Assembly (NCBI GenBank): GCA_009829735.1
Contig: CM020619.1
Span: 26,190,063 to 26,254,062, forward strand
DNA: 64,000 bases
Direction: 5' to 3'
Source: Pyropia yezoensis
Lineage: Eukaryota; Rhodophyta; Bangiophyceae; Bangiales; Bangiaceae
Made by a program: the position numbers and the translations under genes. Positions 4,536-54,560 of the stretch are shown here, piece by piece (position 1 is the first letter of the stretch; each line of letters begins with the position of its first letter). The notes under the pieces are model-generated. The model saw only the letters and a program-made list of their open reading frames with translations, searched no databases and was not told where the DNA came from.

Positions 4536-5504
4536 TGTGAGGACCCACCCAAAACCGGGGAGCCCTCAAAGTACTCGTGGGGGTGTCAGCGGCCCTGCGA
4601 GCCAATGGGGCGGCGCGGCACGGGGAAGAGGACGGTGGTCTCGACGGGGATGGGTCTGGGGAAGAAGATGGGCGCGACGTCAGTGGGGATCGAGGGTACA
4701 AAAGGTAAACAGTGTCTTTGGTCTGTGTCTGTGGTTGCACCTCTCGTCTCCCCCGGTGGCGCCGACACCCACACACTATATACTCGCGTCGGGGCACCCG
4801 AGGTGCCCCAAAGCATGCGTTTACCCCATCGCACCGCCGGTAGGCACAGAACGGTCGAAAAACAAAGCATGTCTGTCAGAACAAAGCATGGGCGGGCGTG
4901 CGCACTAAAGGAGTGTAGCCCCAGTTTGCCCGAAACGAAGGGTTCCCGTGGATGGCGCCCAGCGCGCCTCACCAGCCGGCTCCACACGCCGGTCGGCCAG
5001 AAGGTCTGACCGGCTGTAAGGGCCAGCAAGGCCAAATTCAATCAATCCCTTGACCGGCCAGCCAGTCACCAACCAGCTGGCCGAACTCAATCAATCCAAA
5101 AGCCGGCGAGCCAGTCATATCGCACTCAGCCGCCAGCGAGGATGTGTGGTGTCCTCAGTGTCGGTGAATCATGTGACTGGTCCTTGATGCCAGCTTTCAA
5201 ACAGCGCAGATAATAAAATTCAGGCAGCACAGACGGGGATGTCCGCCCGTGGTTGGTCGACGATGTCACTCGCTCCTCGTTTTCGAGTTTCGACGTCCAT
5301 GACAGGGTTCCGACATTACGTTGACGGCGGCTTTCGTGCGGTCGGCCGACGTCCACAAAATGTCAGGGATACAGCGTGGTGTCGCCCAGGGTAGTGGGGA
5401 ATTGATGTGTCTTGGGGGGAGTTATCGGGGCCGGACATGTAAGGAGAGGTCCCAGTCCATATCCCCTGGGTCCCGGGTGGCGATTTAAGGGGCAAATCCT
5501 TACA
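4536..5504 (-). repeat. 3' LTR of element A (969 bp)
   Basis: It is nearly identical in length and sequence to 26449-27417, with TGTGAGG and CTTACA ends on the plus strand. It contains a TATA-like core (4776-4783), three copies of CATGCTTTG on the minus strand (4882-4890, 4863-4871, 4809-4817), and an 8-bp-arm dyad between the TATA box and the nearest copy. Confidence 0.95.
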
Positions 5505-5518
5505 CCTCCCCCCCCTTA
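5505..5518 (-). other. Polypurine tract of element A
   Basis: Read on the minus strand, this is a run of A and G (TAAGGGGGGGGAGG) abutting the 3' LTR, where plus-strand DNA synthesis is primed in LTR elements. It overlaps the last codons of the integrase frame. Confidence 0.85.
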
Positions 5519-8099: not shown

Positions 8100-8799
8100 T
8101 GTAGCGTTATGGCCCTTCTGGCCCAGAGTCCGCACACACAAGAAACCGCAACGGGGTCAGGAAGGAACGGGTAAAGGTCCCAGCGTGATCCACTCGCCCG
8201 CCCCTTCAGAGGCAAGGGTAAAAGGACAAAAGCCCGAGGGAGCAAGTACCCAAAGAACCGTTGATTTTACAAGTTGGCCCCGGGGAGACCCCGGAGCACC
8301 CCTCAAGAACCTCCCCCTTGGCCCCTCCGGGGGCCTGGAGCGGGGCCCCTAGAGGGCGCCTCTGGCGGGTCGAGCGCCAGCAAGGCGTCTGACCTCCACC
8401 AGGTCCTCCAGCGCATCCCCTACACCGGGGTTACACTGGGGCGCCGAGGGTCACCAATCAACCCCCGGTCGCCAAACACAAGCGAAAAGCAAGCGAAAAT
8501 CCCCCCACACACAGATGCCAATCCCCGAAAAAAACTCAGTGGGAAAAAGGGGAAAGACACGAAAACACGCAGTGAAAACAAATACGAAACAAATGGCCAC
8601 AATGGCCAGTAAGGCCACCTCCACCGGCCAAATCCGCCTCCCTGGGTGGGACCAATCAGGATCCCGGGTGTGTCGCCACAGTCCCGAGTCACTGACAGAG
8701 GGGGCCCCGGCAAGAGATGGGCTCCACGTACCATAGCCCGCCGGGTCCCAAGTCACCTCCCCAAGGGCTCGCCTGTCCCCAAAGGCTCAGAACGCCACA
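8100..8799 (-). repeat. 3' LTR of element B (700 bp)
   Basis: Same length as 22598-23297 and about 98.5% identical by eye. Ends are TGTAGCG and CGCCACA. The minus-strand purine stretch just inside it (reverse complement of 8801-8812) is the likely polypurine tract. Confidence 0.95.
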
Positions 8800-9216
8800 T
8801 GGCCCCCTCACAAAGGCCGAGCGTCCCGCCGGCCAACAAGGTACAGGATTCGAGCGGGCCGAGGGGAGGAACAGATGGGTCCGGGGGGGGGGGGTGAGAA
8901 CCGCACACAACGACTCACTGGGCCAGTGTCTCCGACAGTGGTCGCCTTCTATAAGGGGGGGAGGCGTGGTCCACGGGTGTCGGAGAGGGCCCGACGAGAG
9001 GGGTCACAACGGGGGCCACACGCGCCAGGGAGAGAGAGAGGGGAAGGGGGGAGGGCGTAGCAGAGAGAGAGAGAGAGACAGGGGGGAAGGGGCGAGGGGA
9101 GGGCGCGGCATGCCACCCCCACGGCACGCCTGACCCCATCCCCCTCTGCCGCAGAGCGTCAGGGGAGGGGTCGAGTGCTGTGGTACGGGGGGGGGGGGGG
9201 GGGAGTTGCCGCGGCC
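8800..9216. other. Element B segment between 3' LTR and antisense gene, with GA microsatellite
   Basis: This 417-bp segment is noncoding as far as I can tell. It includes long purine runs, notably GA repeats at 9029-9080, and a G homopolymer at about 9186-9203. It lies where a promoter for the plus-strand antisense frame would sit. Confidence 0.6.
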
Positions 9217-11142
9217 ATGCCGCCGGGTCGGCCTCCTGTCGGGGAGGAAGACCCGGACATAAGCGGGCCCCCTCGGGTCCCTGCGACCGTCTCTACCCTG
9301 GCCACCCGACTCACTCATACCCAGCGCGGGCCCTCGGTCCCACGCGCGCCATCGCGTCGGCCGCCACCACCACCACACTCATCGGTCCCTCACCTGGCCA
9401 GCTACCTTGCGGATCCCCTGGCCCCTCCACCTCCTCTCTCACCTTCGGCCCCCTTGTTTTCCAAGGGCCCTTACGTTCCCGACGCAGCGGCGTCGCGGAC
9501 CACGATGGACGTCGACGGCGGAGCGGTTCCTGATGGGCCCCTTGGTCACGATGGGCCCAACGACCACGGCGGACAAGAGGAGCCGGGGGCGGGCAAGCTG
9601 TACACCGACATCATCGGCGGGTTTCCGGAGCAGTTTGGGCCCGAGGGCCGTGTTGCGTGGGACCGCGAGAGGGCCAGGGGTTGAATTACTTCCTCAAGGG
9701 CCCACACGACCCTGCGGTTCATCGACGGGCCCTGTACTGGCTACTCCTTCTTCCGCCAGATGGTCACCATGCCCGAGGCCCGTGTTCCAATGCGGGCCGA
9801 CCGGTCCGAGTCGCTCACCGTGGTCCGTCATGTGGACGAGGTGGGCTACGTGGTTCGGTTCAAGGAGGAGCGGGACAAGGCGATTGCCGGGTCCGCGCCG
9901 TTGCCGGCGGCCCCTTCGGGCCAGTACGTCATCAAGACCTCTCCATTTCTCGGTTACGACGGGTTCCAGCCGGCCCGTCAGTACCTGGTGACCAACCGGC
10001 ACCACCGGGACAAGCATCGGAACTTCGTGGACTGGCATCAACAAGAGTTCCCAAGCTGTCCCGCCATGGACCGTGGGGCCCATTATGTCCGGGTCCCTCA
10101 GTGGTGGGTTGGTGTCGAGGTCCCTTTTGGAGCCATCACGGAGCTGCCACCGGTCCTGTGTTATTTCGGGGACCTACTGCGAGCCAACGATACCTTCACC
10201 TGGGCCGTGTTTCGGTCCGAGTGGGCCGTGCACGCGGGGGTCCTTCTGCTCCGTACGGCCCGGCTATCCTGCCAATTGTGGCTCTTCTCCCGGACCCTTC
10301 GAACCTGGATCCGTCGTGTAGGGACCAAGGTGATCTGTCGCACCCAGTCGGGGTTGGACTCCGTGGCCGAGCGGGACCTTGAGCTTCTCCTGGACCTACA
10401 TGACAAGGTGGCTCCGGTCCCCGGTTTAGTGGCCCGTCTCCACAAGGTGAACCCGAAGGACCGTATGCGAACTTCTTGGGTCCTAGTGCGGTTCGAACCA
10501 ACGGACGGGACCTGGGGGGTCCGGGTCGATGAGGACCTGGCCCCATTGGACCTACCTTATTCTTCTGACGTGTTGGAGAGTCGGGAGCTCGCAGTGGACC
10601 TAGGGACCGAGGGTGCCGCTTCTCAAGGCGCTGCTCTTCCCGGTCCGGTCGTCGCCCGCGCTGCTGGGTCAGTCGGTTCCACGGGTCATCGCCAAGGGCC
10701 CTCCTCGGGTCCGGCCATCCTTGTCGCCAACCTCATGGGCCACCGAGACGTCCCTGACTCCGAGTTGGCCCAATTGGAGGGTGGTATCCCACCGCAAGTC
10801 GTCGGGGCCCTTCGCGGTGTGGTCGGGGGCCCTATGGACAACCTTGAGGGGGCCCAGGTCGGATCCCTCCTCGCGGCTAGTCTCCATACGATGGTGAACC
10901 TTGGGACCCGTGTAGCCGGGTGGGCGCAGGACCAAGTGGGCTCGGAGGTCCCAGACTACAAGCGGCTCCTGGACCTCGTGGACCGGCATGGGATCCGCCA
11001 GGACCTTAGGAAGGAGTTGGTCTTTGCGACCCGGGAGGCTCAGCGGGAGTGGGGGACCACGTCGGGGTCGCGGGTACGTGGTCGGTCCGATGTGGACGAC
11101 GAAGAGGAGGACCCCCGGGCCGAGAGCCGGGCCCGATACTGA
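9217..11142 (+). CDS. Element B antisense ORF (conserved with element C), function unknown
   Basis: This frame runs opposite to gag-pol, from beside the 3' LTR toward the pol 3' end. ATG 9217 to TGA 11140-11142 is about 641 codons with one in-frame TGA at 9682-9684. It has a Pro-rich N-terminus, a central region with Trp pairs (PQWWVGVEVPFG near 10090) and a DLPY segment near 10550, and an acidic/Arg C-terminus. Element C carries a counterpart at 17567-15623 with aligned landmarks: YLVT then WWxxVEVP(F/Y)G, and a later D(L/Y)PY. Size and placement agree too. I recognise no known domain. Plant retroelements such as Grande and RIRE2 are known to carry antisense or extra genes, but whether this is related cannot be told here. 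The in-frame TGA may be decay or an error. Confidence 0.7.
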
Positions 11143-11404
11143 GTCAACTTGGGGTCGTTGATAGATGGAGAGTTGGCTCGTTTGATTTGTAGAGCCCATG
11201 TTGTCCATTATAAACCTGTGTTTGCTTGCCATCCGTGAGAGCAGTTCGAGTCCAGCGAATTGAGTGTCTAAATCAACTGACACTTGTGGCCCTTCCAACA
11301 CTACACGAGTCCAAGGGATAAGTCCCAGCTCAGTCAGGCATGGGACCCATGGTCAATGGCAATGTGGGCCCATACTTTCCACCATTGTCTCACGGTCCAT
11401 GGGC
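11143..11404. other. Short gap between convergent antisense ORF and pol of element B
   Basis: About 260 bp separate the plus-strand antisense stop from the minus-strand pol stop. I see no gene here. The two frames converge and would share a 3' region. Confidence 0.6.
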
Positions 11405-13358
11405 CTAGTGAAGGCCAGGAGGTGGGTCACATGGGACAGGGCCAGAGCATCGAGGGCCAGGGTACTCCAGCGGTCCACCACGAGGGCACATGTCCGCCCC
11501 CGGCTCCAGAAACCAGGGCCAAACAGAGTAGATGGCCTTCAATGGTTCCAGTAGAGCTAGGGCCCGTTCCTCCAGCATAGGGGGCTCGGTCCCGACTCGG
11601 AAACAATACTGGGTCACTTTGCGCCGGTCGAACTTATACCAGGGTTCCCAAGTGTCCTCGCTGGGGGCGTACCCCCACCAACGTACCTTGAGCCAGAGGT
11701 CCCCATCAGTGTCACGGTCCCAAGCGACAAAGCGTTCCCAGACAAAATGCTTCCCAGTGTCCTCATGGTCCAGTGGTACGACCGGTTCCTGCGGGCCATG
11801 AAGCATTGTTGAAGAGTCCATCTCTCCCGCTGGGGTCGGAGCTCGGGCCACATGGTCACTGCTGACTCTGTCAGGAAACCCCTTGGCCATCACCGTGAAG
11901 GTGTGGCCATCGCGTCTTAGGATCCGGTAGGGCCCTTCAACAATCTGGTCCAACTTCTTGCGCTCCTTGTCGTGAGTGTCCACATAGATCCAATCGCCGG
12001 CCTTGAGAGTCTCGTTAACCGTATTGACCCGACGATCATAACTCTTCTTGTATCTCTTCTGGGCCAGCTCGAGGTTGTTACGGACCTTAAAGGCCAGGTC
12101 ACGATGGTGGGCCCGTCGAGCCTCACGCATCTGCTTAGCGGACCCGGTGAACTTCTTGGGATACGGAGAACTCGGCAACTGGTCCAAAGCATATGACCGG
12201 ACCCTCACTGGGACCACGAACTCCAACGGGGCCACGCCTGTGCTCTGCTGGGGCCTTGAGTTGTAGGCCACCGTGAACACGGATACAAGCTCGTCCCATC
12301 GGTCCTGGTGGTCCTCGATGTAGGTCCTCAACAGGGCCACTATGGTCCTGTTGTAACGCTCAACCTGGCCCTGGGTCTGTGGGTGGTATGTGGTCGAGGT
12401 AAGATGCTTGATACCAATCATACTACACACGGCCCGGAAGTGAGTTGAGGTAAGCTGGGGCCCATTGTCGGTGAGCAAAGTATCGGGGGGTCCATAGGAA
12501 GCTACCCAAGTGTCCAAAAAGGCCGACGCTACGGTCTCAGCGTCTTCACGGTCCACAGGGACAACACGGGTTAGTTTTGTGAAACGGTCCACCATGACCA
12601 CCAAATACTTGTTGCCATTAATGGTCTCCGGTAAGGGGCCCAGCAGGTCAAGACACACATCGGTAAACGGTTCAGTGGCCGGGAAGAGCCGGAGTGGGTT
12701 GGTCCGCCGGCGCCCTTGGACCTTGCCTTTCGCACAGGCCGAACATCGGGACACAAAGGCGTACACGTCCGTGATCATAGAGTCCCAGTAGAAGGACCGA
12801 CGGAGCGACGTGTACATCTTATTGACTCCCGGGTGTCCCGCGTGGCCCGGCTCGTGTTCGAGCACAAGGATCTCCATCTGTAGGCTCTTCGGGACCAGTA
12901 TCTGCACCGCACGGTCCAAGGGGGCCAGGCGAACAAGTAGGCCATCGGGAGTCTCCCCAAGCCGAGAGTTAGCATTCTGGTTCATGTGGTCCCTTATCTC
13001 CTTGCATCGGGGGTCCTTGGCTTGGGCCTCAAGAATCCTCTGAACCGTCATGGGCGGGTACCGCTTGTCGCTTTTGAAACTCGGTTGGACCCAGCCCCTT
13101 GCGAAGTTGGCTAGGGTCAGTAGGGCCGGGATCTCTTCTGGTATGGGTCCGCGGTCCGCGCCCGACGTAGCCAGTCGCGACATAACGTCCGCCGCGTGGT
13201 GGTGTTGACCGGGCCTTGACTCCACGGTATAGTTGAACTCTGCGAGCCTTAAGCGCCAGCGGGCCAGGCGTCCATGAGCCCCATCCATATGTAGCATCCA
13301 TTTGAGGGCCGTGTGGTCCGTGCGGACAATAAAACGGGTCCCTTGAAGATCGGGCCTT
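11405..13358 (-). pseudogene. Element B RNase H (C-terminal part), integrase and chromodomain
   Basis: The open minus-strand frame begins at the point where element C interrupts RNase H (FIVRTDHTALKWML) and is otherwise uninterrupted. The integrase has an HHCC finger (HEPGHAGH, CSAC) and a D,D,E core (VCLDLLGPLP, LLTDNGPQ, and the Glu of QTQGQVERYN). A chromodomain follows (WERFVAWD, VRWWGYAPSEDTWEP), then about 60 Pro-rich residues to the stop. The apparent upstream extension into 13359-13825 is only the element C LTR read through. The frame agrees with the RNase H piece at 18383-18607 after removing element C and one TSD copy. Confidence 0.92.
13354..13358. repeat. Target-site duplication of element C (GCCTT), left copy
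   Basis: GCCTT precedes the left LTR of element C and recurs at 18378-18382 after the right LTR. It lies within the RNase H coding sequence of element B. Confidence 0.95.
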
Positions 13359-13826
13359 TGTGGCAGTATTGACCCCCAGGTAGGGGGCAACACGTGCCAT
13401 GCAAGGGGCGGCAGGCCACTAGCCTGATCCGTTCCTCCCCCTGCATTTGGGTCCATATTCCCTAAGTTTGGGATAGTTAGCTTAGTAGTAAATCCAACTT
13501 GGATTTGAGGGTTTTCTGCATTTATCGTCTTGAATTTTCGTGTGGCCCGGTGGGCAGGTGCTGGGGTGGGAGATTCTGAGTGGCGAGATTCTGAGTGGAC
13601 CCTGGGGGGATAAGGGGAGGGACAGCGGGGCTTGGCCCTGCGTCCCCGTCCCGACCAAGAAACTGTTGGACCACACACCATCTTCTTGTTTGTCCGTGGG
13701 GGGATTGCCCCACAACAGGGATAGAGTGTGTGCGACTTGCACTTCTTCCGGTTCCCCCGACACGGGAGGCAGCCCTCGCACACCGCCCCAACTTGGGTAC
13801 TGTGTGTGCGAGTGGTTTTTGCCACA
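13359..13826 (+). repeat. 5' LTR of element C (468 bp)
   Basis: It begins TGTGGCAG and ends TTGCCACA. I found no difference from 17910-18377. A diverged 468-bp relative lies at 53989-54456. Confidence 0.95.
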
Positions 13827-13828
13827 TT

Positions 13829-13846
13829 TGGTGGAGCAGCAGGGGA
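13829..13846 (+). other. Primer-binding site of element C
   Basis: TGGTGGAGCAGCAGGGGA starts 2 bp after the 5' LTR. The TGG start pairs with the CCA end of a tRNA. The same 18-mer is the primer site of element B (22576-22593, minus strand), and a near copy serves element D. The tRNA would have acceptor 5' strand GGAGCAG and discriminator A; I cannot name it from sequence alone. Confidence 0.85.
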
Positions 13847-14396
13847 CAGAGGTAAACTTTACCTCCGGGTGCACCCGGGTGTAGGGGGCCCTCTGTCTCA
13901 GAGGAACGGTGGTCTTGGACTGTGTCGTGTGGATCGTTAGCCAACACGGCTGGATCGGACCTCCCGACGTTCGGGAAACTCTCCGGTGACGACTTTACTC
14001 CGGCGCCTTTGAATACTGGCCAGACACAGGGTGTACCTGGGGTCGCGGAGGTGCTAGAGGCACTCCAGCCAGCAGGGCCGTGGGTATCGGTGCGGGCGGT
14101 ATGCCACCCCGACCCAGTCGGGTGTTCACCCTGAGGGTCTTCCTCGGACCGGTGGTTCGCACTTCGGCCACCGGGTGGTACACTCAAAGGGAACGTCCCA
14201 AGGTGAGAGGACTGTCCCCGCGAGATCCACTCGGGTTGGATTCAACTTCGGCATAGAGCCGTCGCCAACTAGGCGGGTGGAGGACGGCGGACCTTCACTC
14301 GTCGGTGATGGGCTCGAGCCTGTGACAGGGGTCGTAGCAAGTTGCTACCCCCGCCACCCTCAAAGAAAGTATCTTTGATCGGGAGCCAAGTTCGGC
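13847..14396 (+). pseudogene. Leader and presumed gag remnant of element C
   Basis: Where gag should begin there is no long frame. Short plus-strand frames (for example 13922-14134) have Gly/Pro/Val-rich sequence resembling the low-complexity N-termini of the B and D Gag proteins, but no capsid core or zinc knuckle. I read this as a truncated gag plus leader. Confidence 0.4.
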
Positions 14397-15511
14397 TATA
14401 TCGACCAACATGAGGGACCGGCAGTAGCGGTCACCCTCAACGCGGGCGCGAGTAGCGACCCGAAGTCCGGAAAGGAGAAGCACCAAGCCAAGTCGGCCGC
14501 CTCTCCTCGTCCCCATGTGAACATGGAGGGTGTTCCACCCAGGTTGAGGGTTCAAGTTGAACGCCTCTTGGACCAATATCACAAGTTGTGGGATGGTCAA
14601 TTGGGACTCATGAGAGCCACCCAACACCGGATCGAGTTGAAACCCGGTGTACCCCCTATACGCCAACAACCGTATAGGGGAGGGCCCCGTTCAAGGGCCC
14701 TCGTCAAGGAGCGCTTCAACAAAACTATTGTTAGGCAGCTGCGCCACTATGTGAGTGAGCATGTGAAAACGTGGGACCAATACATTTCTATTCTTACCAC
14801 TGCCTACAATTCGCAGGTTCACTCATCTACCGGGGAAGTACCCCTCGCTTTTGTGACCCCCCGTCGCGTGCGGTCTATTGTTGTGCGGCGGTCGCTCCCA
14901 ACTAGGGAGGATGATGGCAGCACGCCTACTCCTACTGAGAGTAAGGCGGAGTTCGCTGCTAGGCTTGAACTCCTCATCCCTAAAGTCAGGGCTGAGATGG
15001 ACAAAGCACAAAAGCGCTACAAGCGTACCTTTGACAAAAAGGGGCGCAATGCTAAGCATGTCCCCGAACAGGGTGACTGGGTGCTGTTCACTCACACACC
15101 CCAACTGGGGGTAAGTTGGTATTCCAGACGAAGGGACCGTACCAGGTCCTTCGTACTGATGGGCGGCGCTTCACCATCGAAAGTGACGATGGGGTCCGCA
15201 CAGTGAACGGACAGGACGTGGTCAAAGTTGCACCACCGTCTGCAGGCGACCCAGCTTGGGCGCGTGCTTTGGAAGCGTGGCGCCTCCCCTCACTGCCTGC
15301 GGCCAAACAGGGCCCGCAGGAGTACGTGTTCGATAAGTTCATCGACCACGGATGGGATGAGGATACTAACCGCCTCATGTTGAGGGTGCGTTGGTTTGGC
15401 TACAAAGCCAAGGATGATACGTGGGAGTATGTGGAGGACCTTCCCGCTGAGAAGGTCCGGGCGTACTGTGCCCGGAATGAGATAGACCCTAACAGCCCTC
15501 CCTCAACGTGA
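14397..15511 (+). pseudogene. Element C pol remnant: reverse transcriptase start fused to integrase end and chromodomain
   Basis: The plus-strand frame to 15206 begins with a segment matching the entry to reverse transcriptase in element B (YHKLWDGQLGLM, HRIELKPGVPPIR). It passes without a break into the integrase C-terminal region (YISILTTAYNSQ, QKRYKRTFDKK). A one-base frameshift near 15095-15110 leads to the frame 15116-15511, with KGPYQVL and a chromodomain (VFDKFIDH, VRWFGYKAKDDTWEY). The polymerase, RNase H and integrase catalytic residues are all missing through an internal deletion, so no functional enzyme can be made. Confidence 0.88.
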
Positions 15512-15622
15512 GGGAAGGCCGAGCAACAGTGCCAAGAGAGTGCTTCAAGTCGAAGTGGTACGCAGAGTGGCTTTTAACTACGGCCCTAACCCTCACACTC
15601 TCACAACAAAGGCAGCGGCCAA

Positions 15623-17567
15623 CTAGGCACGCATGCTAGACTCTCCCACTCCACGGCCCTCGCCCTCACGTGGAGGCGAGCGGCGAGACCCACGCCGATA
15701 ACGGTCTCCACTCGTTGGAAGGGGCGGCGGCTCCAAGTCGGAACCGTCGCGCCCCTCACGGTCGCGCAAGTGGCGCCGACCGTGGCTACTCTTCTGCCTG
15801 GTCTTGCGCGCAAGTTTGCGACGCAGACGCTGGACAGACTCCGTCTCCGATGGGGTAGAGGACTCCGAGACGGAGTAAGACAACTCGTCTTCCGACACGG
15901 AGGGAGAGCGCCGCGAGTGACGGCGACGACGGCGAGGAGGCGAGTATGCCCGGCTCGCGCGACGTTTGCCACGCCCAAGTGGGGCTGGCTGGGGCATAAT
16001 AGCCCCAATGCGAGCCAACTCGGCTGTCGTAAACTCCGCCACCGACTCGCAACTCGCGGTCGCCACTGCAGTACGAACGCGCTCCTCAAGTTGAGGAGTC
16101 TCGGAACTTTGGAGGGTTGCGGTCGACGCGGCCAACCAGGAAATGGTGCGCACCAACGTGGTGATCATCATCTCTGAGGTTAGAGGCGTGGGCGGTAACA
16201 CCAACTTGGGGTATACCGTCAGGAGGGTGGCCCCCAGGTTGGGGGACACCGGGGTGGACGACTCAACGGCCACGCTAATCGGGATGTCCCCGTGCGGCTG
16301 GAAGGGGACAGGAGGAAGCGGAGGGGCACGCCGAGGTGGCGGGACCCGGGTGTAACTGCGACCCCGACTTGGGGCCCCCGCAGTGGGTTGAGTCATATGG
16401 TCATCATATGAGGGCACGGCCATAACTATGGGCTTGTCCGGGGGTGGCGCAGTGTGGCGATCCACTCCCGGGGCATACGGGTAGTCCCCGATGCCCAACC
16501 CCTCTCGTAGGACCACACGGCCGTCGTGAAGTTCACGAGCGACCCACACGAATTGGCGAAGTGCGCCATCGTCCTTGGGCCCACGAGTGGGGCGGCGCAA
16601 CTTGTGCTCAATGCTCTCCCACTCGATAAACTTGTGGAGGCGGAGCATCTCCTCAAGTAGAGTGAGTTGTCCTGACGAGCACCCCTCAGCAACTAGCTGA
16701 GGGGTGAGCTGTTCCAAACCCTGGATGAGCCGGAGGGGGAGATGCCAGAGCATCCCCCGCCGCTGAACACATGACACCCAGGTCGACATGACCTCGAGGA
16801 GCCACTGGGTAGCCAACATGGCCCACACCAGATGATCAGGGCCAGCCGTCAACATGACGGAGCCGAAGTGGTCAAGCAACCGTGGCAACAATGCCGGGAA
16901 CCCGTAGGGGACCTCAACTTGAGGCCACCACTCGGGCTTCTTCGGGTAGTATTGCTCCTTACTGGCAGCAGACTGCTGAGGAACCTCAAGTTGAGCCGAG
17001 GTCACCAAGTAGGGACCTCGCCGGAAGTCCTTCTCCATCCGCACATCAAAGTGATGAGTGTGCGGATCGGCCTCGTGAAGGTACGGGGGGGCGAGTTGCC
17101 ACCGCGTCCCAAGTGAAGGTCGGCAAGTCGCCGGGACCCGGGATAGTTCCCCCGCGGTCCACCATGGCCTTGGCCCGCTGCACGTCCTCGACCTCCTCGT
17201 CGTCCAGGAAGGCAAACTGGTCCGTCCTGAAGCCGGCAGGGAACCCGACCCTACGGGGATACTTCTCCCGTAGGCGGTCCCATACCCGACCCATCGCTGC
17301 GCCAAGTCGGCCACAGCGAAGAACAGTCAACCCCTCCTCATACAGAGGCCAAGCGGGGTAAAACCACCGCCCCAAGGCCTCACGCGGGACAACTTGTCCC
17401 GCCTCCGGGGGAGATCCTGCCGTCAACCCAAAGCCGGGTGACGCGGGAGTCCCATCCCCCGGAGCGATCGCGGAGCCCCCGCCGGAAGTCCCGGCAGGCG
17501 CTGCACCGTAGGAAGTGTCCTCCATACGCTCATCGAGAGAGTCCGTCTCCACTCCCGGAGTCGCCAT
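15623..17567 (-). CDS. Element C antisense ORF, homologue of the element B antisense ORF
   Basis: This frame opposes the pol remnant and runs from near the 3' LTR inward. It starts at ATG 17567 and stops at 15623-15625, giving about 647 residues with one frameshift at a run of seven C (minus strand; plus-strand G run near 17080). Landmarks aligning with element B are RAKAMV followed by Gly/Pro-rich sequence, YLVT near 17010, EWWPQVEVPYG near 16925, and IGDYPY near 16480. The C-terminus is Arg/Ser-rich (RRRRRHSRR and SxSE repeats), resembling nuclear or RNA-associated proteins by composition only. No domain is recognised. It survived in an element that lost almost all of gag-pol, which suggests selection or use in transposition. 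Confidence 0.7.
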
Positions 17568-17890
17568 GGCTCTCCCCAAGTTGGGGAGAGACGTCCTGGC
17601 TATCGCGGCACGAGACCCGCCTCGAGTTGAGGGGGACTCGGATCGTGGGTAAACGGGTGGCCTCCCCAGCGTGGGGTGGCCCCGTGTAAGGTGAAGGAGA
17701 AGTGGTGGTGGTGGTGAGGTGTGAACTGAGGAGAGCAAGCTGCCAAGTGGGCAAGCTTGAGGAGAGGGGCGGCCAACGTGACCGCCTCCACATCCGCGTT
17801 ACGTACTCAAGGGGGGACAGCAAGTCGCGTCCCCCCCCAACGCCGAGACGTGCGTTTACGCACCCCCTCACAGGGCCGACCGGGTCGGTC

Positions 17891-17909
17891 GGAACTGAGG
17901 AGAGGGGAG
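17891..17909 (+). other. Polypurine tract of element C
   Basis: An almost pure purine stretch (GGAACTGAGGAGAGGGGAG) abuts the 3' LTR. This confirms plus-strand orientation of the element. Confidence 0.85.
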
Positions 17910-18377
17910 TGTGGCAGTATTGACCCCCAGGTAGGGGGCAACACGTGCCATGCAAGGGGCGGCAGGCCACTAGCCTGATCCGTTCCTCCCCCTGCATTTG
18001 GGTCCATATTCCCTAAGTTTGGGATAGTTAGCTTAGTAGTAAATCCAACTTGGATTTGAGGGTTTTCTGCATTTATCGTCTTGAATTTTCGTGTGGCCCG
18101 GTGGGCAGGTGCTGGGGTGGGAGATTCTGAGTGGCGAGATTCTGAGTGGACCCTGGGGGGATAAGGGGAGGGACAGCGGGGCTTGGCCCTGCGTCCCCGT
18201 CCCGACCAAGAAACTGTTGGACCACACACCATCTTCTTGTTTGTCCGTGGGGGGATTGCCCCACAACAGGGATAGAGTGTGTGCGACTTGCACTTCTTCC
18301 GGTTCCCCCGACACGGGAGGCAGCCCTCGCACACCGCCCCAACTTGGGTACTGTGTGTGCGAGTGGTTTTTGCCACA
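17910..18377 (+). repeat. 3' LTR of element C (468 bp)
   Basis: It matches 13359-13826 at every position I compared. It is followed by the GCCTT target duplicate and then by element B RNase H sequence. Confidence 0.95.
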
Positions 18378-18382
18378 GCCTT

Positions 18383-20536
18383 CGCAAAAACAGGGCCCAC
18401 ACGACGGCCAGACATTCCCGCTCCGTCGTGCTGTAGTTCCTCTCTGCCGCCGTCAGGACCCGACTCCAGTATCCAACAGGCCGGTAGGACCCGTCCTCTT
18501 GCTCCTGGAGCAAGACGCACCCAATTTGGGCTGCGCTGGCGTCGGTATCAACAATGTACAGACCCGTGCGTCTCGGTAGGGCCAGAATGCGAGTGTGGGT
18601 CAGGCGGTACAAACGCGTCCATTTGTTCCGGGGTAAATGGTGGCAAGGGGTCAGGGACCTTAGAACTCGTCAGGGCCAAAAGGGGACGAGCGACCTTGGC
18701 GTAGTCCCTTACGAACCGACGGTACACGTTGCACATACCAAGGAAACTTCGCAGGTCCTTCTTGGTCCTTGGGGCCTTGGCTTGACGGAGCCCGACCAGG
18801 TTCTTCTCATTGACCCGGAGCTGGCCCTTGCCGACGATGTGGCCCAAGTACTCAACTTCATCCTGGAACAGGTGACACTTCGTGGCCTTGAGGGACACAC
18901 CAGCCTTAGATAGCAACTCAAAAACCTCCTCAAGATGGGCCAGATGCTCCTCATGGGACCTAGAGAAAACAATCACGCTATCCAAGTAAACCAAGCACGT
19001 CTTCCACTTGACTCCAGAAAGGATTATGCCAATGGCCCGTTGGAACGTAGCGGGCACGTTAGTGAGGCCAAAGGGGAGCCGGACGTACTTATAGGTCCCT
19101 TTGTGACAGGTGAATGTCGTCTTGTCCTGGTCCTCGAGGGCCTCAGGGATCTGCCAATAACCAGCGTTGGCATCCATCATAGAGAAAACGGTCGCCTCCC
19201 CCAGGAAGTCAATACAATCGTCCATCCGGGGGAGGGGGTAAGTGTCCTTGACCGTGAGGTCGTTGAGCCGACGGTAATCAACACAGAATCGGGGGGTCCC
19301 ATCAGACTTCGGGACCAAAACGACAGGAAAGGACCATTCGGCTTGCGACGGCTCGATGACTTGGAGCTTCAGCTGCTTCTCGACTTGCTCCCTAATGAGG
19401 TCCCGATGGTGGAGCCCAGTACGATACGGTTGGGACCTTATGGGCCGTGCCCCCTCCTTCAACGTGATGCGATGAGGGGTGATGTCCAACCGGCCCAGCT
19501 GGCCATCCCAGAGTCCCTTGTATCGGCCCAGCAGTTCTCGTACCGCGCCGTGTAGGGCCGGAGGGATCAGTTCATAGGCCACCCGCGGCATAGGCTGCGG
19601 ACCAACGTTGTCCATCTTGGGCCTCTCAATCGGGGGAACAGGGTCACCGGTGTGGACCATCTTGGCCCGCGGTTCCTCCAGCTCCTCCACTTGCGACGTG
19701 GCTCCCTCAGCGGGCACCAACGTGGCCAACGGGTCGGCCCCCTCACAAGGCTCTGGCAACTCCTCGAACGGGATCTCTTGAACCGGACCATCATATGGGA
19801 TCGCGAAGCCCACTGCAAAGTTCTTGGGCAGGTTCACGGGCCTCTTGGACAGATTCGTCAGGTACAGTCGGAAATCCCTTCGGGTCTTAACATGGGCCAA
19901 AGCATTGTGGAGTCGTAGGCCCTTCTTGGCCATCTTGTGGGGCCGTTCGTACAACAGGCATCGGCCCTCGGTCCCGCAGCGTACGTAGACGGCCTGCATG
20001 GACCTTGGGGCCAGCGTTACGCCCTTTGACAGGCACAGGGCGCTCGGATCATGTCGGACCGGGTTCCCCTTGAGGGACAAGGCCTTCTGTTTCTTGCCGT
20101 CCCATGCCCGCTTGGCATACGTAAGGATCCCACTGGACCAAAGTACCGACTCGGTCCCAGGGTAGATGGCCTTCACGTGCTCCTTCTGGAAGTCCATCCC
20201 CAGGATCACAGGGACAGAAAGGGCCTTCTTCAAGACCATAAACTCAAACGGCATGGCCCTTCCTTCCACAATAACGGATAACTCAACGAGTCCACGGGCC
20301 TTCAACAACTGGCCCGAGGCATCACAAACACGGGTCTTCATAGGGGCCCGCGCTGCCTTGTTTCTCCAGTCCTCAGGAAGCACGTCCTCCCTTACTACAC
20401 TGGGCCCGGCTCCAGTGTCCAAGACCGCCATCGTCGTTCTCGGGTCCTCGGTATCCAGCCGGACCAAAGCATCTAAGGCAAAGTTCCTTTTGCGTAAAAC
20501 GAGCAGTGTCCCCTTGAACCCGTAGGGCCGTTTCAT
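18383..20536 (-). pseudogene. Element B protease, reverse transcriptase and RNase H N-terminal part
   Basis: The minus-strand frame from ATG 20536 starts inside a longer open frame, as expected if pol is made by frameshifting from gag. Protease shows VLDTGAGPSVV (catalytic DTG). Reverse transcriptase shows CVDYRRLN, MMDANAGYWQI, LPFGLTN and VYLDSVIVFS. The last box is YLDS where nearly all Ty3/gypsy enzymes have YLDD, so a catalytic Asp is replaced by Ser (codon AGC). A one-base frameshift near 18605 moves into the RNase H frame (VDTDASAAQIG, TERECLAVVWA), which then meets element C. Both lesions would block function. Confidence 0.92.
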
Positions 20537-20736
20537 CCCCGCCCGACGCTGACGCCATGCCTTGGACCGACGAGTCAGGTGGGGTAAGCACGACTTGGGT
20601 CCCTTAGAATCATTTGTAGACGCAGTAGGTACAGGTACAGTAGGGCCCCGAAAGATCTTCGAGAAGCCCAGTGCAGAGGCAATCGAGCATGAACTATCGG
20701 GCCGACGGGGAGTGGACCTTTTGGGCCCGCCCCCCC

Positions 20737-22452
20737 TTACTCTTTTCCCAGGGGCTTGGGGTCCACAGGGCCATCGTTCTCGGGATCATCACGGTCCGCC
20801 TCGTCGTCCGAGAGGTTGATCCCCTCGCACAGCGCCTGGACCATAGCGATCCGAGTCTTACGATGAAACTCGTGATCCGCCTTAGGATGGACCTCGGTAG
20901 ACTGACTCCGGCCCCGTGTGGCTCCAAGGAAATTATCACGGGCCTTCTGGACCATCTTGCGTTGAGCCTCCGTCAGGGTGGGACATTGGTGGGCCATGTG
21001 GCCCGTCTCCCAACAGAGGTAGCACCGAAAGGGAACGCGACTGTCCAGAGTTCGGCCCCTGACATACGGAACCGTGGGGGCCTTGAACCCATACGTCCTG
21101 CCAGGGTCAATCTTGTCCGTTACCTTTCCCACGAGCCGATGCAGAACCGTCGTAGGGCCCGTCGAGTCCACCGTCAGCAGCGGTTCAGAATCAGTGGGCT
21201 TCCGGGGCTTGAAATCAACGGGCCGACGTGTGGCCCCGGATGTAGAGCCCCGCGAAGAAGACGCTTGGCCCTGGGCCATCTTGATCACGTCGGTGGCCGC
21301 CTTGTGCTTCCCAGAAGCAAAGGTAACGAGCTGCTGATAGGTCCGTTTCGGACCGTTAAAGACGTACGCATCGGTCCGTAGGAACTCAGAGAGCCCTTGG
21401 ATCAGTTGCTGTTTCATGGTCCCTTCCGAGTGGATGTTTCCAACCGACTCGGTGAGCCCACGGAGCCGCAGAGCAAAGGCCTCAATAGTCTCATCCGGTT
21501 CCTTTGTGGCCCTGCTAATCTTGTCCTGGGCCACCGCGAGCGCATGGGGTTCAGCATAGGTCTCCAGGAACCAATTGACGGCCTCCGGGTAACTAGTGAT
21601 CGAGGCGCCCCCCGACGCGCTGGTGGAATCAGGTAGGGCCCGTGAGTACCGCAACTCCGCGTCGCCCGAGAGTAACTGAGGGATCACATAAAGGGCCATA
21701 CCCTCAGAGACCCCATTGTCGTTACAGGCCTTTACCAGCTTACGGAGCCAGGTAAACACTTTGAGCCCATCCTTACCGGAGAAGTTCGGATAACCGGAAA
21801 AAGAGTGTCTCATGTTACGGGCCACACGGCCCATCTTCTTCGCTTCACGGGTCCCATACGTGTTCTTCTTGTTCAGGAGTCGATAGGTACGATAGTCTAG
21901 GACCTTGGAAAAGCGATCATCGGAACAGCTAAGGATCTCGGGGCCAGGTCGCACGCCATCCTGCGCGCCAGTGGACTCCGCACTAGAGGAAGAGGACCCA
22001 GAGGTCCCGGAAGAGGATGAGGAGCCCGATGAACGGCGACGTCGGGACCGACGGCGACGGGAACTAGTACGGTTGGACCGTCGGGAACCAGGGGATCGTT
22101 CGGGACCAACGGACTCACCCTGACCAGTGGGGCTCTGGCTCAGGGCCTGCGATACTGTGGCCAAAATCTCGTCACGGAAAGTCTCAAGGACCGAATGAAG
22201 CTCTGTCGGCCCGGAATCATCTGCGGGACCGGGGACACGGGTTCCACCTCGAATCCCGGTCCCTTCGTCTCGACGCGAATAAGAAGGAATCACAGCCGGC
22301 GGCGTCTGACGCCGGCGCGGAATACCAGAGGGCCCGCCTCCGCCGTGAATCTCAGGACCACTAGGGGCCCCACGACCACGACCAGCGGGTGTCACCATCG
22401 ATGCGTCCGAGGGCGCAGCGCGGCCCCGCCCACCAGGGGGAAGGTCCGCCAT
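20737..22452 (-). CDS. Element B Gag polyprotein
   Basis: A 571-residue Gag with ATG at 22452, about 125 bp after the primer-binding site, and no internal stop. The N-terminal third is low complexity, with a Gly/Pro region and an Arg/Ser tract around residues 150-190. The capsid core (about 215-430) includes FSGYPNFSGKD, NGVSEGMALYV and YPEAVNWFLETYA. A canonical CCHC zinc knuckle (CYLC, then GHMAHQC) lies near residues 477-490 and would bind genomic RNA. The core aligns well with the Gag of element D (54561-55841). An acidic C-terminus (LSDDEADRDDPEND) precedes the stop, and pol lies in another frame about 200 bp on. Confidence 0.93.
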   Translation of the reverse strand: MADLPPGGRGRAAPSDASMVTPAGRGRGAPSGPEIHGGGGPSGIPRRRQTPPAVIPSYSRRDEGTGIRGGTRVPGPADDSGPTELHSVLETFRDEILATVSQALSQSPTGQGESVGPERSPGSRRSNRTSSRRRRSRRRRSSGSSSSSGTSGSSSSSAESTGAQDGVRPGPEILSCSDDRFSKVLDYRTYRLLNKKNTYGTREAKKMGRVARNMRHSFSGYPNFSGKDGLKVFTWLRKLVKACNDNGVSEGMALYVIPQLLSGDAELRYSRALPDSTSASGGASITSYPEAVNWFLETYAEPHALAVAQDKISRATKEPDETIEAFALRLRGLTESVGNIHSEGTMKQQLIQGLSEFLRTDAYVFNGPKRTYQQLVTFASGKHKAATDVIKMAQGQASSSRGSTSGATRRPVDFKPRKPTDSEPLLTVDSTGPTTVLHRLVGKVTDKIDPGRTYGFKAPTVPYVRGRTLDSRVPFRCYLCWETGHMAHQCPTLTEAQRKMVQKARDNFLGATRGRSQSTEVHPKADHEFHRKTRIAMVQALCEGINLSDDEADRDDPENDGPVDPKPLGKE

Positions 22453-22575
22453 GTTGGCCCTACGGCAATCGACCTGAACCAAAGGGCACCTCGAATAGGG
22501 TCAAAGGACCAAAAGAACCACAGCGCCACCAAGGATAGGAGAGGGCCTTCCCGATACGGGAGAAGAATATGGCCC

Positions 22576-22593
22576 TCCCCTGCTGCTCCACCA
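22576..22593 (-). other. Primer-binding site of element B
   Basis: On the minus strand, TGGTGGAGCAGCAGGGGA starts 4 bp after the 5' LTR. It is identical over 18 bases to the element C site. Confidence 0.85.
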
Positions 22594-22597
22594 AAGA

Positions 22598-23297
22598 TGT
22601 AGCGTTATGGCCCTTCTGGCCCAGAGTCCGCACACACAAGAAACCACAACGGGGTCGGGAAGGAACGGGTAAAGGTCCCAGCGTGATCCACTCGCCCGCC
22701 CCTTCAGAGGCAAGGGTAAAAGGACAAAAGCCCGAGGGAGCAAGAACCCAAAGAACCGTTGATTTTACAAGTTGGCCCCGGGGAGACCCCGGAGCACCCC
22801 TCAAGAACCTCCCCCTTGGCCCCTCCAGGGGCCTGGAGCGGGGCCCCTAGAGGGCGCCTCTGGCGGGTCGAGCGCCAGCAAGGCGTCTGACCTCCACCAG
22901 GTCCTCCAGCGCATCCCCTACACCGGGGTTACACTGGGGCGCCGAGGGTCACCAATCAACCCCCGGTCGCCAAACACAAGCGAAAAGCAAGCGAAAATCC
23001 CCCCACACACAGATGCCAATCCCCGAAAAAAACTCAGTGGGAAAAAGGGGAAAGACACGAAAACACGCAGTGAAAACAAATACGAAACAAATGGCCACAA
23101 TGGCCAGTAAGGCCACCTCCACCGGCCAAATCCGCCTCCCTGGGTGGGACCAATCAGGATCCCGGGTGTGTCGCCACAGTCCCGAGTCACTGACAGAGGG
23201 GGCCCCGGCAAGAGAAAGGCTCCACGTAGGGTAGCCCGCCGGGTCCCAAGTCACCTCCCCAAGGGCCCGCCTGTCCCCAAAGGCTCAGAACGCCACA
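22598..23297 (-). repeat. 5' LTR of element B (700 bp)
   Basis: Partner of 8100-8799 with equal length and about 10 differences by eye, several clustered near its outer end (around 23215-23240). It is followed by the GATAC duplicate at 23298-23302. Confidence 0.95.
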
Positions 23298-53988: not shown

Positions 53989-54456
53989 TGTGGCAGAATT
54001 GGCCCCACGCAGGGGAGCAGAGCGCGCCACACTGGGACGGGAGACAACTGGTCTAACCCGTTCCTCCCTTTGCATTTGATCCCGATTTTCCCTAAGTCAG
54101 GGATACATTGCTTGATAGTAAATCCAACATGGATTTGAGGGTTTTCTGCATTTTATCGTCTTGAATTTTCGTGTGGCCCGGTGGGCAGGTGCTGGGGTGG
54201 GAGATTCTGAGTGGCGAGATTTTGAGGGACCCTGGGGGGATAAGGGGAGGGACAGCGGGGCTTGGCCCTGCTTCCCCGTCCCGACCAAGAAACTGTTGGC
54301 CCACACACCATCTTCTTGTTTGTTAGTGGGGGGATTGCCCCACAACAGGGACCGCGTGTGTGCGACTTGCACTTCTTCCGGTTCCCCCGACACGAGAGGC
54401 AGCCCTTGGGCACCACCCCAACTTGGGTGCTGCGCGCGCGAGTGGTTTTTGCCACA
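53989..54456 (+). mobile_element. LTR of the element C family, isolated copy (468 bp)
   Basis: It starts TGTGGCAG and ends TTGCCACA and has exactly the length of the element C LTRs, but with many substitutions. Flanking pentamers (GCCAC and GTCTC) do not match, and neither a primer-binding site nor a purine tract adjoins it. It is therefore the remnant of a larger event, not a clean solo LTR. It abuts truncated element D. Confidence 0.85.
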
Positions 54457-54560
54457 GTCTCGCCAACAGCCCGTACCGGTACTGGGTTAGCGCCTCCCTT
54501 ATACTTGTCGAGTCCTGGACAAACTCGCGACAAAGGCTTGAGAGTCGACACCATGGGGGC

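What the first reader, a model, noticed from the sequence alone, without database searches (positions are those of the whole stretch)
9217..17567. A conserved antisense gene in two different LTR retroelements
Elements B and C, in opposite orientation and with unrelated LTRs, each carry a frame of about 640-650 codons on the strand opposite gag-pol, between the end of pol and the 3' LTR (9217-11142 plus in B; 17567-15623 minus in C). Shared landmarks in order: an R(A/F)K segment, YLVT (9982; 17011), WWxxVEVP(F/Y)G (10102; 16930) and D(L/Y)PY. Each copy has only one lesion. Equal size, place and order argue for a real gene family. Antisense or extra genes are known in some plant gypsy elements, but I recognise no family for this protein. 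It could regulate the element, act in targeting, or be a product made from the 3' LTR side.
Basis: partly seen in the sequence, partly recalled or inferred. Interest (0 to 1): 0.92.

Follow-up and report, generated by a model that had tools for sequence, protein, structure and literature searches.

The report
Antisense gene in algal LTR retroelements
Several families of jumping genes in what appears to be the nori seaweed genome carry the same extra protein gene, written backwards behind their replication genes, and selection seems to have kept it for a long time although its job is unknown.

Summary
The middle (8100-23297, minus) and inner (13359-18377, plus) of three nested LTR elements each carry a long frame opposite to their own gag-pol, between pol and the 3' LTR; PBS, PPT and target duplications fix the orientations. 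The two proteins are homologous (BLASTP E 1e-10; hhalign 96.6%, 236 columns). Window copies are broken, but 61 of 77 listed inner-type hits and 27 of 43 near-full-length middle-type hits have no stop inside. Between-family dN/dS is 0.26-0.32, against 0.08-0.10 for pol. Of 68 pol hits, 34 have the gene within 1.5 kb downstream, all 34 on the opposite strand; 34 have no listed partner. Pol and antisense identities agree over 8 elements (rho 0.94). Two reciprocal deletion lineages exist: most of pol lost with the gene kept, and the gene lost with pol kept, which suggests a product acting in trans. No family was recognised. Best reading: a new protein family in the known niche of antisense additional ORFs. 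Transcription and function are inferred.

The parts
8100..23297 (-). Middle LTR element: LTRs 8100-8799 and 22598-23297 (98.6% identical), TSD GATAC; inserted in the outer element
   Evidence: self-comparison; boundaries
22576..22593 (-). PBS of the middle element, TGGTGGAGCAGCAGGGGA
   Evidence: 2559 exact sites in the genome, 0 for the backward-read control
20737..22500 (-). gag of the middle element; zinc knuckle E 0.003, below the Pfam cut-off
18548..20785 (-). pol of the middle element, first part (protease, RT)
   Evidence: RVT_1 E 3e-31, RVP E 3e-4
11405..13357 (-). pol of the middle element, second part (RNase H end, integrase, chromodomain-like C-terminus)
   Evidence: rve E 5e-16, Integrase_H2C2 E 1e-15; Chromo E 0.02, below cut-off
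9505..11142 (+). Antisense gene of the middle element from the homologous ATG; stop TGA at 9682-9684 inside; 262 bases between its stop and the pol stop
8800..9504 (+). Leader between the 3' LTR and the antisense ATG (the PPT of the element lies at its LTR edge, about 8800-8812, read on the minus strand); contains TATAAG, absent from the 21 other upstream stretches scanned
13359..18377 (+). Inner LTR element, deletion derivative: LTRs 13359-13826 and 17910-18377 (100% identical), TSD GCCTT
13829..13846 (+). PBS of the inner element, same sequence as the middle one
14367..15206 (+). pol remnant: a piece upstream of the RT joined at about 14708-14712 to the integrase C-terminus; about 2.0 kb present in L014 is missing
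15623..17567 (-). Antisense gene of the inner element, ATG at 17567, one length change in a C run within 17081-17093; 648 aa from ATG in open copies
17568..17909 (-). 342-base leader between the 3' LTR and the antisense ATG; plus-strand PPT GAGGAGAGGGGAG at 17897-17909

Best explanation
An ancient protein-coding accessory gene of a red-algal Ty3/gypsy lineage with a chromodomain-like integrase tail. It lies tail to tail with pol, is read from the 3' LTR side on the opposite strand, and encodes a soluble protein of about 545-650 residues that acts in trans on the element's own life cycle. Most likely it is a regulatory or helper factor, comparable in role to the antisense additional ORFs of plant elements. 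Shown: the gene, its orientation, homology, selection, co-divergence with pol, and reciprocal deletion lineages. Inferred: antisense transcription, translation, solubility, action in trans, and any regulatory or helper role.
For: Homology. Many copies without stops (61 of 77; 27 of 43). dN/dS 0.26-0.32 between three families, near or above 1 (0.87-1.63) in four of the five other frames. Opposite strand in 34 of 34 pairs, out of 68 pol hits; pol converging on the gene at L055 and at 5 of 6 further loci. Co-divergence with pol over 8 elements, rho 0.94, 0 of 5000 permutations reach it. L014 has pol open over 1380 codons and the antisense frame open over 724, 111 bases between their stops. At least 40 copies across the pol-deletion junction; 16 of the 40 hits listed have that junction and the whole antisense region; 19 of 40 hits are end-to-end copies of a form with the gene deleted. 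No 19-residue window above hydropathy 1.41 in the 7 proteins tested.
Against: 34 of 68 pol hits had no listed antisense neighbour, and 58 of 94 pooled antisense hits no listed pol neighbour (all lists capped). 11 of the 34 belong to the ORF-less lineage, the other 23 are unexplained. Within families dN/dS is only 0.46-0.51 (pol 0.34-0.36), and within family B frame -1 scores lower (0.44) than the true frame. Between families synonymous sites are near saturation, so those ratios are rough. No RNA evidence, no domain, no fold. NLS-like sequence only in the inner type and a short KRRK in family B, none in the other five of 7 proteins.
Confidence: 0.6

Rival explanations
1. The protein is a brake made by the element on itself or on relatives (copy-number control or exclusion). 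Lineages that delete it escape the brake.
For: A gene-less lineage keeps pol: 19 end-to-end copies at 92-100%, L062 itself included; 11 of these lie beside listed pol hits, four of them with open frames of 1437-1438 residues (each also shows one TAA in the matched stretch, its place not checked). The protein changes about three times faster than pol (dN/dS between families).
Against: The gene is constrained across families and is also kept in pol-deleted copies, where a brake gives the copy no plain advantage. ORF-bearing sisters are nearly as close to L062 in the shared leader (89-98%) as the ORF-less copies are (92-100%), so no clear burst after the loss is seen.
Confidence: 0.22
2. The antisense RNA, not the protein, matters: it pairs with element RNA and feeds small-RNA silencing or shields the 3' end.
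For: A review reports antisense transcripts and discusses dsRNA as an option for plant elements (PMC7264820).
Against: Protein-level selection, dN/dS 0.26-0.32, and long open frames.
Confidence: 0.06
3. A host gene or another mobile element's gene was caught once and rides along without a role.
For: No known relatives in the family libraries; captured genes are known in LTR elements (PMC7264820).
Against: Co-divergence with pol down to 30-40% pol identity and purifying selection are not expected of a passenger.
Confidence: 0.05
4. An env-like protein for leaving or entering cells.
For: Position between pol and the 3' LTR.
Against: Wrong strand; highest 19-residue hydropathy 0.98-1.41 in 7 proteins, under the usual 1.6 for a membrane span (threshold recalled).
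Confidence: 0.03
5. Chance open frame in GC-rich DNA.
For: High GC lengthens random frames (GC).
Against: Homology across families and frame-specific selection.
Confidence: 0.01

Closest known systems
Antisense additional ORFs between pol and 3' LTR (aORF-3R) of plant gypsy elements: maize Grande gene23, rice RIRE2, Retand, PvRetro13; fungal Boty (PMC7264820, PMC11963269)
   Same: Same place and strand; found in many copies; accessory protein without clear relatives; occurs also in partly deleted elements
   Different: No Transposase_28 (PF04195) hit in 17 alignment members or in the genome at E<=1; apparently a red alga, not a flowering plant; chromodomain-like pol tail whereas Retand is described as non-chromovirus; no sequence comparison with the other named aORF proteins was made
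HTLV-1 HBZ type antisense proteins (as named in the passages of PMC11963269)
   Same: Antisense gene of a retroelement near its 3' LTR
   Different: No direct sequence comparison made; host and size differ; function unproven here
Chromodomain-bearing Ty3/gypsy elements
   Same: Order RT, RNase H, integrase, chromodomain-like tail
   Different: Chromo hits only E 2e-4 to 0.02, below the Pfam cut-off; RT phylogeny not done

Membership tests
aORF-3R (antisense additional ORF between pol and 3' LTR), a positional class | Frame antisense to gag-pol | tested here: met
   for both window elements; 34 of 34 genomic pairs on opposite strands, the other 34 of 68 pol hits unpaired
aORF-3R (antisense additional ORF between pol and 3' LTR), a positional class | Lies between pol end and 3' LTR | tested here: met
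   both window elements; pol end on the inner side in the loci; LTR sequence upstream of the frame in families A, B and C
aORF-3R (antisense additional ORF between pol and 3' LTR), a positional class | Present in most copies and conserved as protein | tested here: inconclusive
   conserved as protein, but only 34 of 68 listed pol hits have a listed partner (capped lists)
aORF-3R (antisense additional ORF between pol and 3' LTR), a positional class | Transcribed in antisense | not testable with these tools
   no RNA data
Retand lineage with TRP28 | Transposase_28 domain PF04195 in the antisense ORF | tested here: not met
   not among the hits of 17 alignment members at E<=10 (HMMER filters drop most matches above 0.1); no hit in G000 at E<=1 (its 14 control genomes rang in one only, below cut-off, so sensitivity is not proven)
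Ty3/gypsy LTR element | PBS, PPT, 5-bp TSD, LTR pair | tested here: met
Ty3/gypsy LTR element | RT-RNase H before integrase | tested here: met
   L014 pol domain order
Chromovirus | Chromodomain at integrase C-terminus | tested here: inconclusive
   weak Chromo hits under cut-off
Chromovirus | RT/integrase phylogenetic placement | not tested
   no reference tree built

The most novel reading that the evidence does not exclude
The antisense gene is a trans-acting second gene system that has been passed down with pol since before these lineages split. It is separable: some derivatives keep this gene and borrow gag-pol, others keep pol and drop it. That makes a natural two-part parasite network in which the protein is either a shared helper or a brake that gene-less lineages escape.
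Probability: 0.35. Interest if true: 0.78.

Novelty: new variant of a known kind. Interest (0 to 1): 0.62.

Why it matters
Antisense accessory genes of LTR elements are described mainly from plants, and their function is unknown (PMC7264820, PMC11963269). This set adds a protein family without recognised relatives, apparently in a red alga, with measured protein-level selection and natural gain and loss contrasts. That makes the question 'what is the antisense gene for' testable by comparing sister lineages with and without it. If unrelated proteins fill the same niche in plants and red algae, the antisense slot itself is favoured.

Tried and rejected
Chance frame: rejected by homology and frame-specific dN/dS. 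Frame -1 also scored low (0.44-0.55), as expected because it shares third positions; within family B it was lower than the true frame (0.44 against 0.51), between families the true frame was lowest (0.26 against 0.45 for A-B).

Module exchange between families: not supported; pol and antisense identities agree (three of the eight rows, r37, r39 and C23, are decayed copies). A free-standing host gene: at 6 further copies the 1.4-kb downstream stretch had pol converging on the gene in 5 (L056, L058-L061; L060 was also a pair); L057 instead held an inner-type pol piece from near the pol start, also on the opposite strand.

Shared frameshift or intron in the inner type: the first rows share the window's frame because the query carried it; (11 copies) shows the same C-run change in 4 copies (L001, L002, L004, L007) and other one-base changes in others, and 61 of 77 listed hits are open.

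A TATA-like box in the middle leader: TATAAG only in the window's own locus (L042) among 22 upstream stretches. No relatives confirmed in viral or prokaryote contig collections. Three searches of the large protein set gave 8 distinct relatives (7; one search returned 6 of those; 1 more); two are 97-98% identical to the queries and may come from the same species. Supplements of papers were not read.

My first pol control used a wrong frame and was redone; one search stopped with an error after its frame table and the pol control was redone with 5 copies of A, 5 of B and 2 of C, stop codons skipped.

Counts by eye from listings: 61 of 77, 27 of 43 (one of the 27 is the window copy, whose stop lies just before the query), 19, 3 and 18 of 40, 16 and 24 of 40, and the overlaps. 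All genome lists are capped, so copy numbers are lower bounds.
Full report
What is there. The window lies at C2:26190063-26254062 of a genome of 107.5 Mb in 11 contigs. Its three contigs named (43.59, 34.33 and 29.39 Mb) match the three scaffolds of Pyropia yezoensis given in PMC7423979 (43.6, 34.3, 29.4 Mbp; passages seen), and GC is high. The organism is therefore inferred, not named by a tool. That paper reports LTR retrotransposons as the main repeat class.

Anatomy. Three LTR elements are nested: outer 4536-27417, middle 8100-23297, inner 13359-18377. The middle element runs on the minus strand (PBS next to the LTR at 22598, PPT next to the LTR at 8799, TSD GATAC); the inner one on the plus strand (PBS after 13826, PPT 17897-17909, TSD GCCTT). 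Both use the same 18-base PBS, found 2559 times in the genome and 0 times when read backwards. The outer element has another sequence at the PBS place, and its pol frame ends at 5516, only about 11 bases from its LTR (4536-5504), so it has no room for such a gene.

The antisense frames. In both elements a long frame lies on the other strand between pol and the 3' LTR.

Copies. With the inner protein as query, 77 hits were scored out of 4464 candidates; 61 of the 77 match residues 78/79-567 at 99% inside open frames of 723-779 codons without stops. With the middle protein, 89 hits from 39 to 100%; of 43 that cover the query nearly end to end, 27 have no stop inside (counted by eye; one is the window copy, whose stop lies just before the query). 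L014 is a relative with pol open over 1380 codons and the antisense frame open over 724 codons, their stops 111 bases apart; the fetched stretch begins inside gag, so its gag was not judged. In families A and B the distance between stops is 359-360 and 377-378 in the copies measured, and 262 in the window's middle element.

Selection. Seven open copies of family A, seven of B and one of C gave mean dN/dS of 0.47 and 0.51 within A and B, and 0.26 (A-B), 0.29 (A-C), 0.32 (B-C) between families. Other frames gave 0.87-1.63, except frame -1 (0.44-0.55), which shares third positions. Synonymous sites are near saturation (pS 0.61-0.67), so values between families are rough. For the pol C-terminus of 12 of these or sister loci, between-family values are 0.08-0.10 and within-family values 0.34-0.36: the antisense protein is constrained but changes about three times faster.

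Linkage to pol. Of 68 pol hits, 34 have an antisense-gene hit within 1.5 kb downstream, all 34 on the opposite strand and none on the same strand; 34 have none. Of the 94 pooled middle-type antisense hits given to that test 36 were paired and 58 not (lists capped; inner-type hits not included). At L055 and at 5 of 6 further loci pol also converges on the gene; L057 holds another stretch of pol, also on the opposite strand. Over eight elements pol and antisense identities correlate (28 pairs, rho 0.94; 0 of 5000 label permutations reach it; 0.87 without the inner type). Across the inner-middle split pol is 30-40% and the antisense protein 18-25% identical. The association looks old and inherited together.

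Two reciprocal deletion lineages. First, the window's inner element has lost about 2.0 kb of pol (junction near 14708) and, against L014, also the stretch from gag to the pol start. At least 40 copies cross the pol junction at 97-100% over 501 bases (the window copy included). In a 3.2-kb DNA search 16 of 40 listed copies have both the junction and the whole antisense region, 24 of 40 begin at the junction and so lack this deletion. Of the 16, five appear as open frames, one is the broken window copy, and ten are not in that capped list. Second, L062 is a pol-bearing element with an LTR 96% like that of family B whose antisense gene breaks off after its first few tens of codons. Its 3' region has 19 end-to-end copies at 92-100% (itself included), 3 partial ones, and 18 others that share only the leader side (bases 1-777 to 1-832, 89-98%); 15 of these 18 overlap a hit. 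Eleven of the 19 lie next to listed pol hits. So loss of either part is compatible with spread, as expected if both products can be supplied in trans.

Protein. 57-72 kDa in 7 proteins; no strong hydrophobic span; a bipartite basic stretch near the C-terminus in the inner type and a short KRRK in B, none in the other five. No Pfam family at E<=1 in five proteins, only three isolated weak hits (E 0.04-0.24) among 17 alignment members; none in PHROGs or NCBIfam for three proteins at E<=0.1; among PDB sequences only a designed protein at E 0.26. Eight distinct relatives came from three searches of 5.8 billion proteins, the most distant 32% identical.

Comparison. [quoted passage not shown] PMC11963269: passages). 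These papers name plant elements and fungal Boty, give nuclear localisation for the Grande protein and a TRP28 domain for Retand. TRP28 was not found here. In the held open-access library, searches for LTR retrotransposon + Pyropia + antisense (0 papers), LTR retrotransposons + red algae + chromovirus (7), Pyropia + LTR + gypsy + genome assembly (8, 5 listed), yezoensis + retrotransposon + genome (30, 12 listed), Porphyra umbilicalis + retrotransposons + gypsy (6), Rhodophyta + LTR retrotransposon + antisense + open reading frame (3), chromovirus + antisense ORF (1, the Retand paper) and antisense ORF + LTR retrotransposon + algae (1) listed no report of this gene judging by title and start of abstract; subscription papers are not held.

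Mechanism. Committed view: a trans-acting accessory protein read from the 3' LTR side, more likely helper or regulator (about 0.6) than brake (about 0.22). Antisense transcription, translation and target are not shown.

Noticed in passing
L062:1700-3300 (C1:40721299-40722899): Pol-bearing sublineage in which the antisense gene is replaced by about 820 bases not matching it; 19 end-to-end copies. Origin of the replacing stretch unknown.
   Followed up: partly
window 8100-8799 and L025, L045 LTRs: LTRs of families A, B and C keep islands of about 82-93% identity although synonymous sites of their genes are near saturation; one island reads CAGGTAAGAG (splice-donor-like) on the antisense strand in A and B, less well in C.
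   Followed up: partly
window 4536-27417: Three-fold nested insertion: outer chromodomain element, middle element in its pol, inner element in the middle pol.
   Followed up: yes
window 53989-54460: Another copy of inner-type LTR sequence (62-93% in two pieces); what it belongs to was not examined.
   Followed up: no
L016:3-752: A second, more divergent inner-type antisense stretch (67%) close to a 94% copy.
   Followed up: no
L003, L005, L016: Copies 99.5-99.9% identical to an open copy apart from one-base indels (1, 5 and 5 of them), which may be assembly errors rather than decay.
   Followed up: partly
34 unpaired pol hits (listed): Half of the listed pol copies have no listed antisense partner; 11 are the ORF-less lineage, the other 23 are unexplained, including copies 93-96% identical to the middle pol.
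   Followed up: partly
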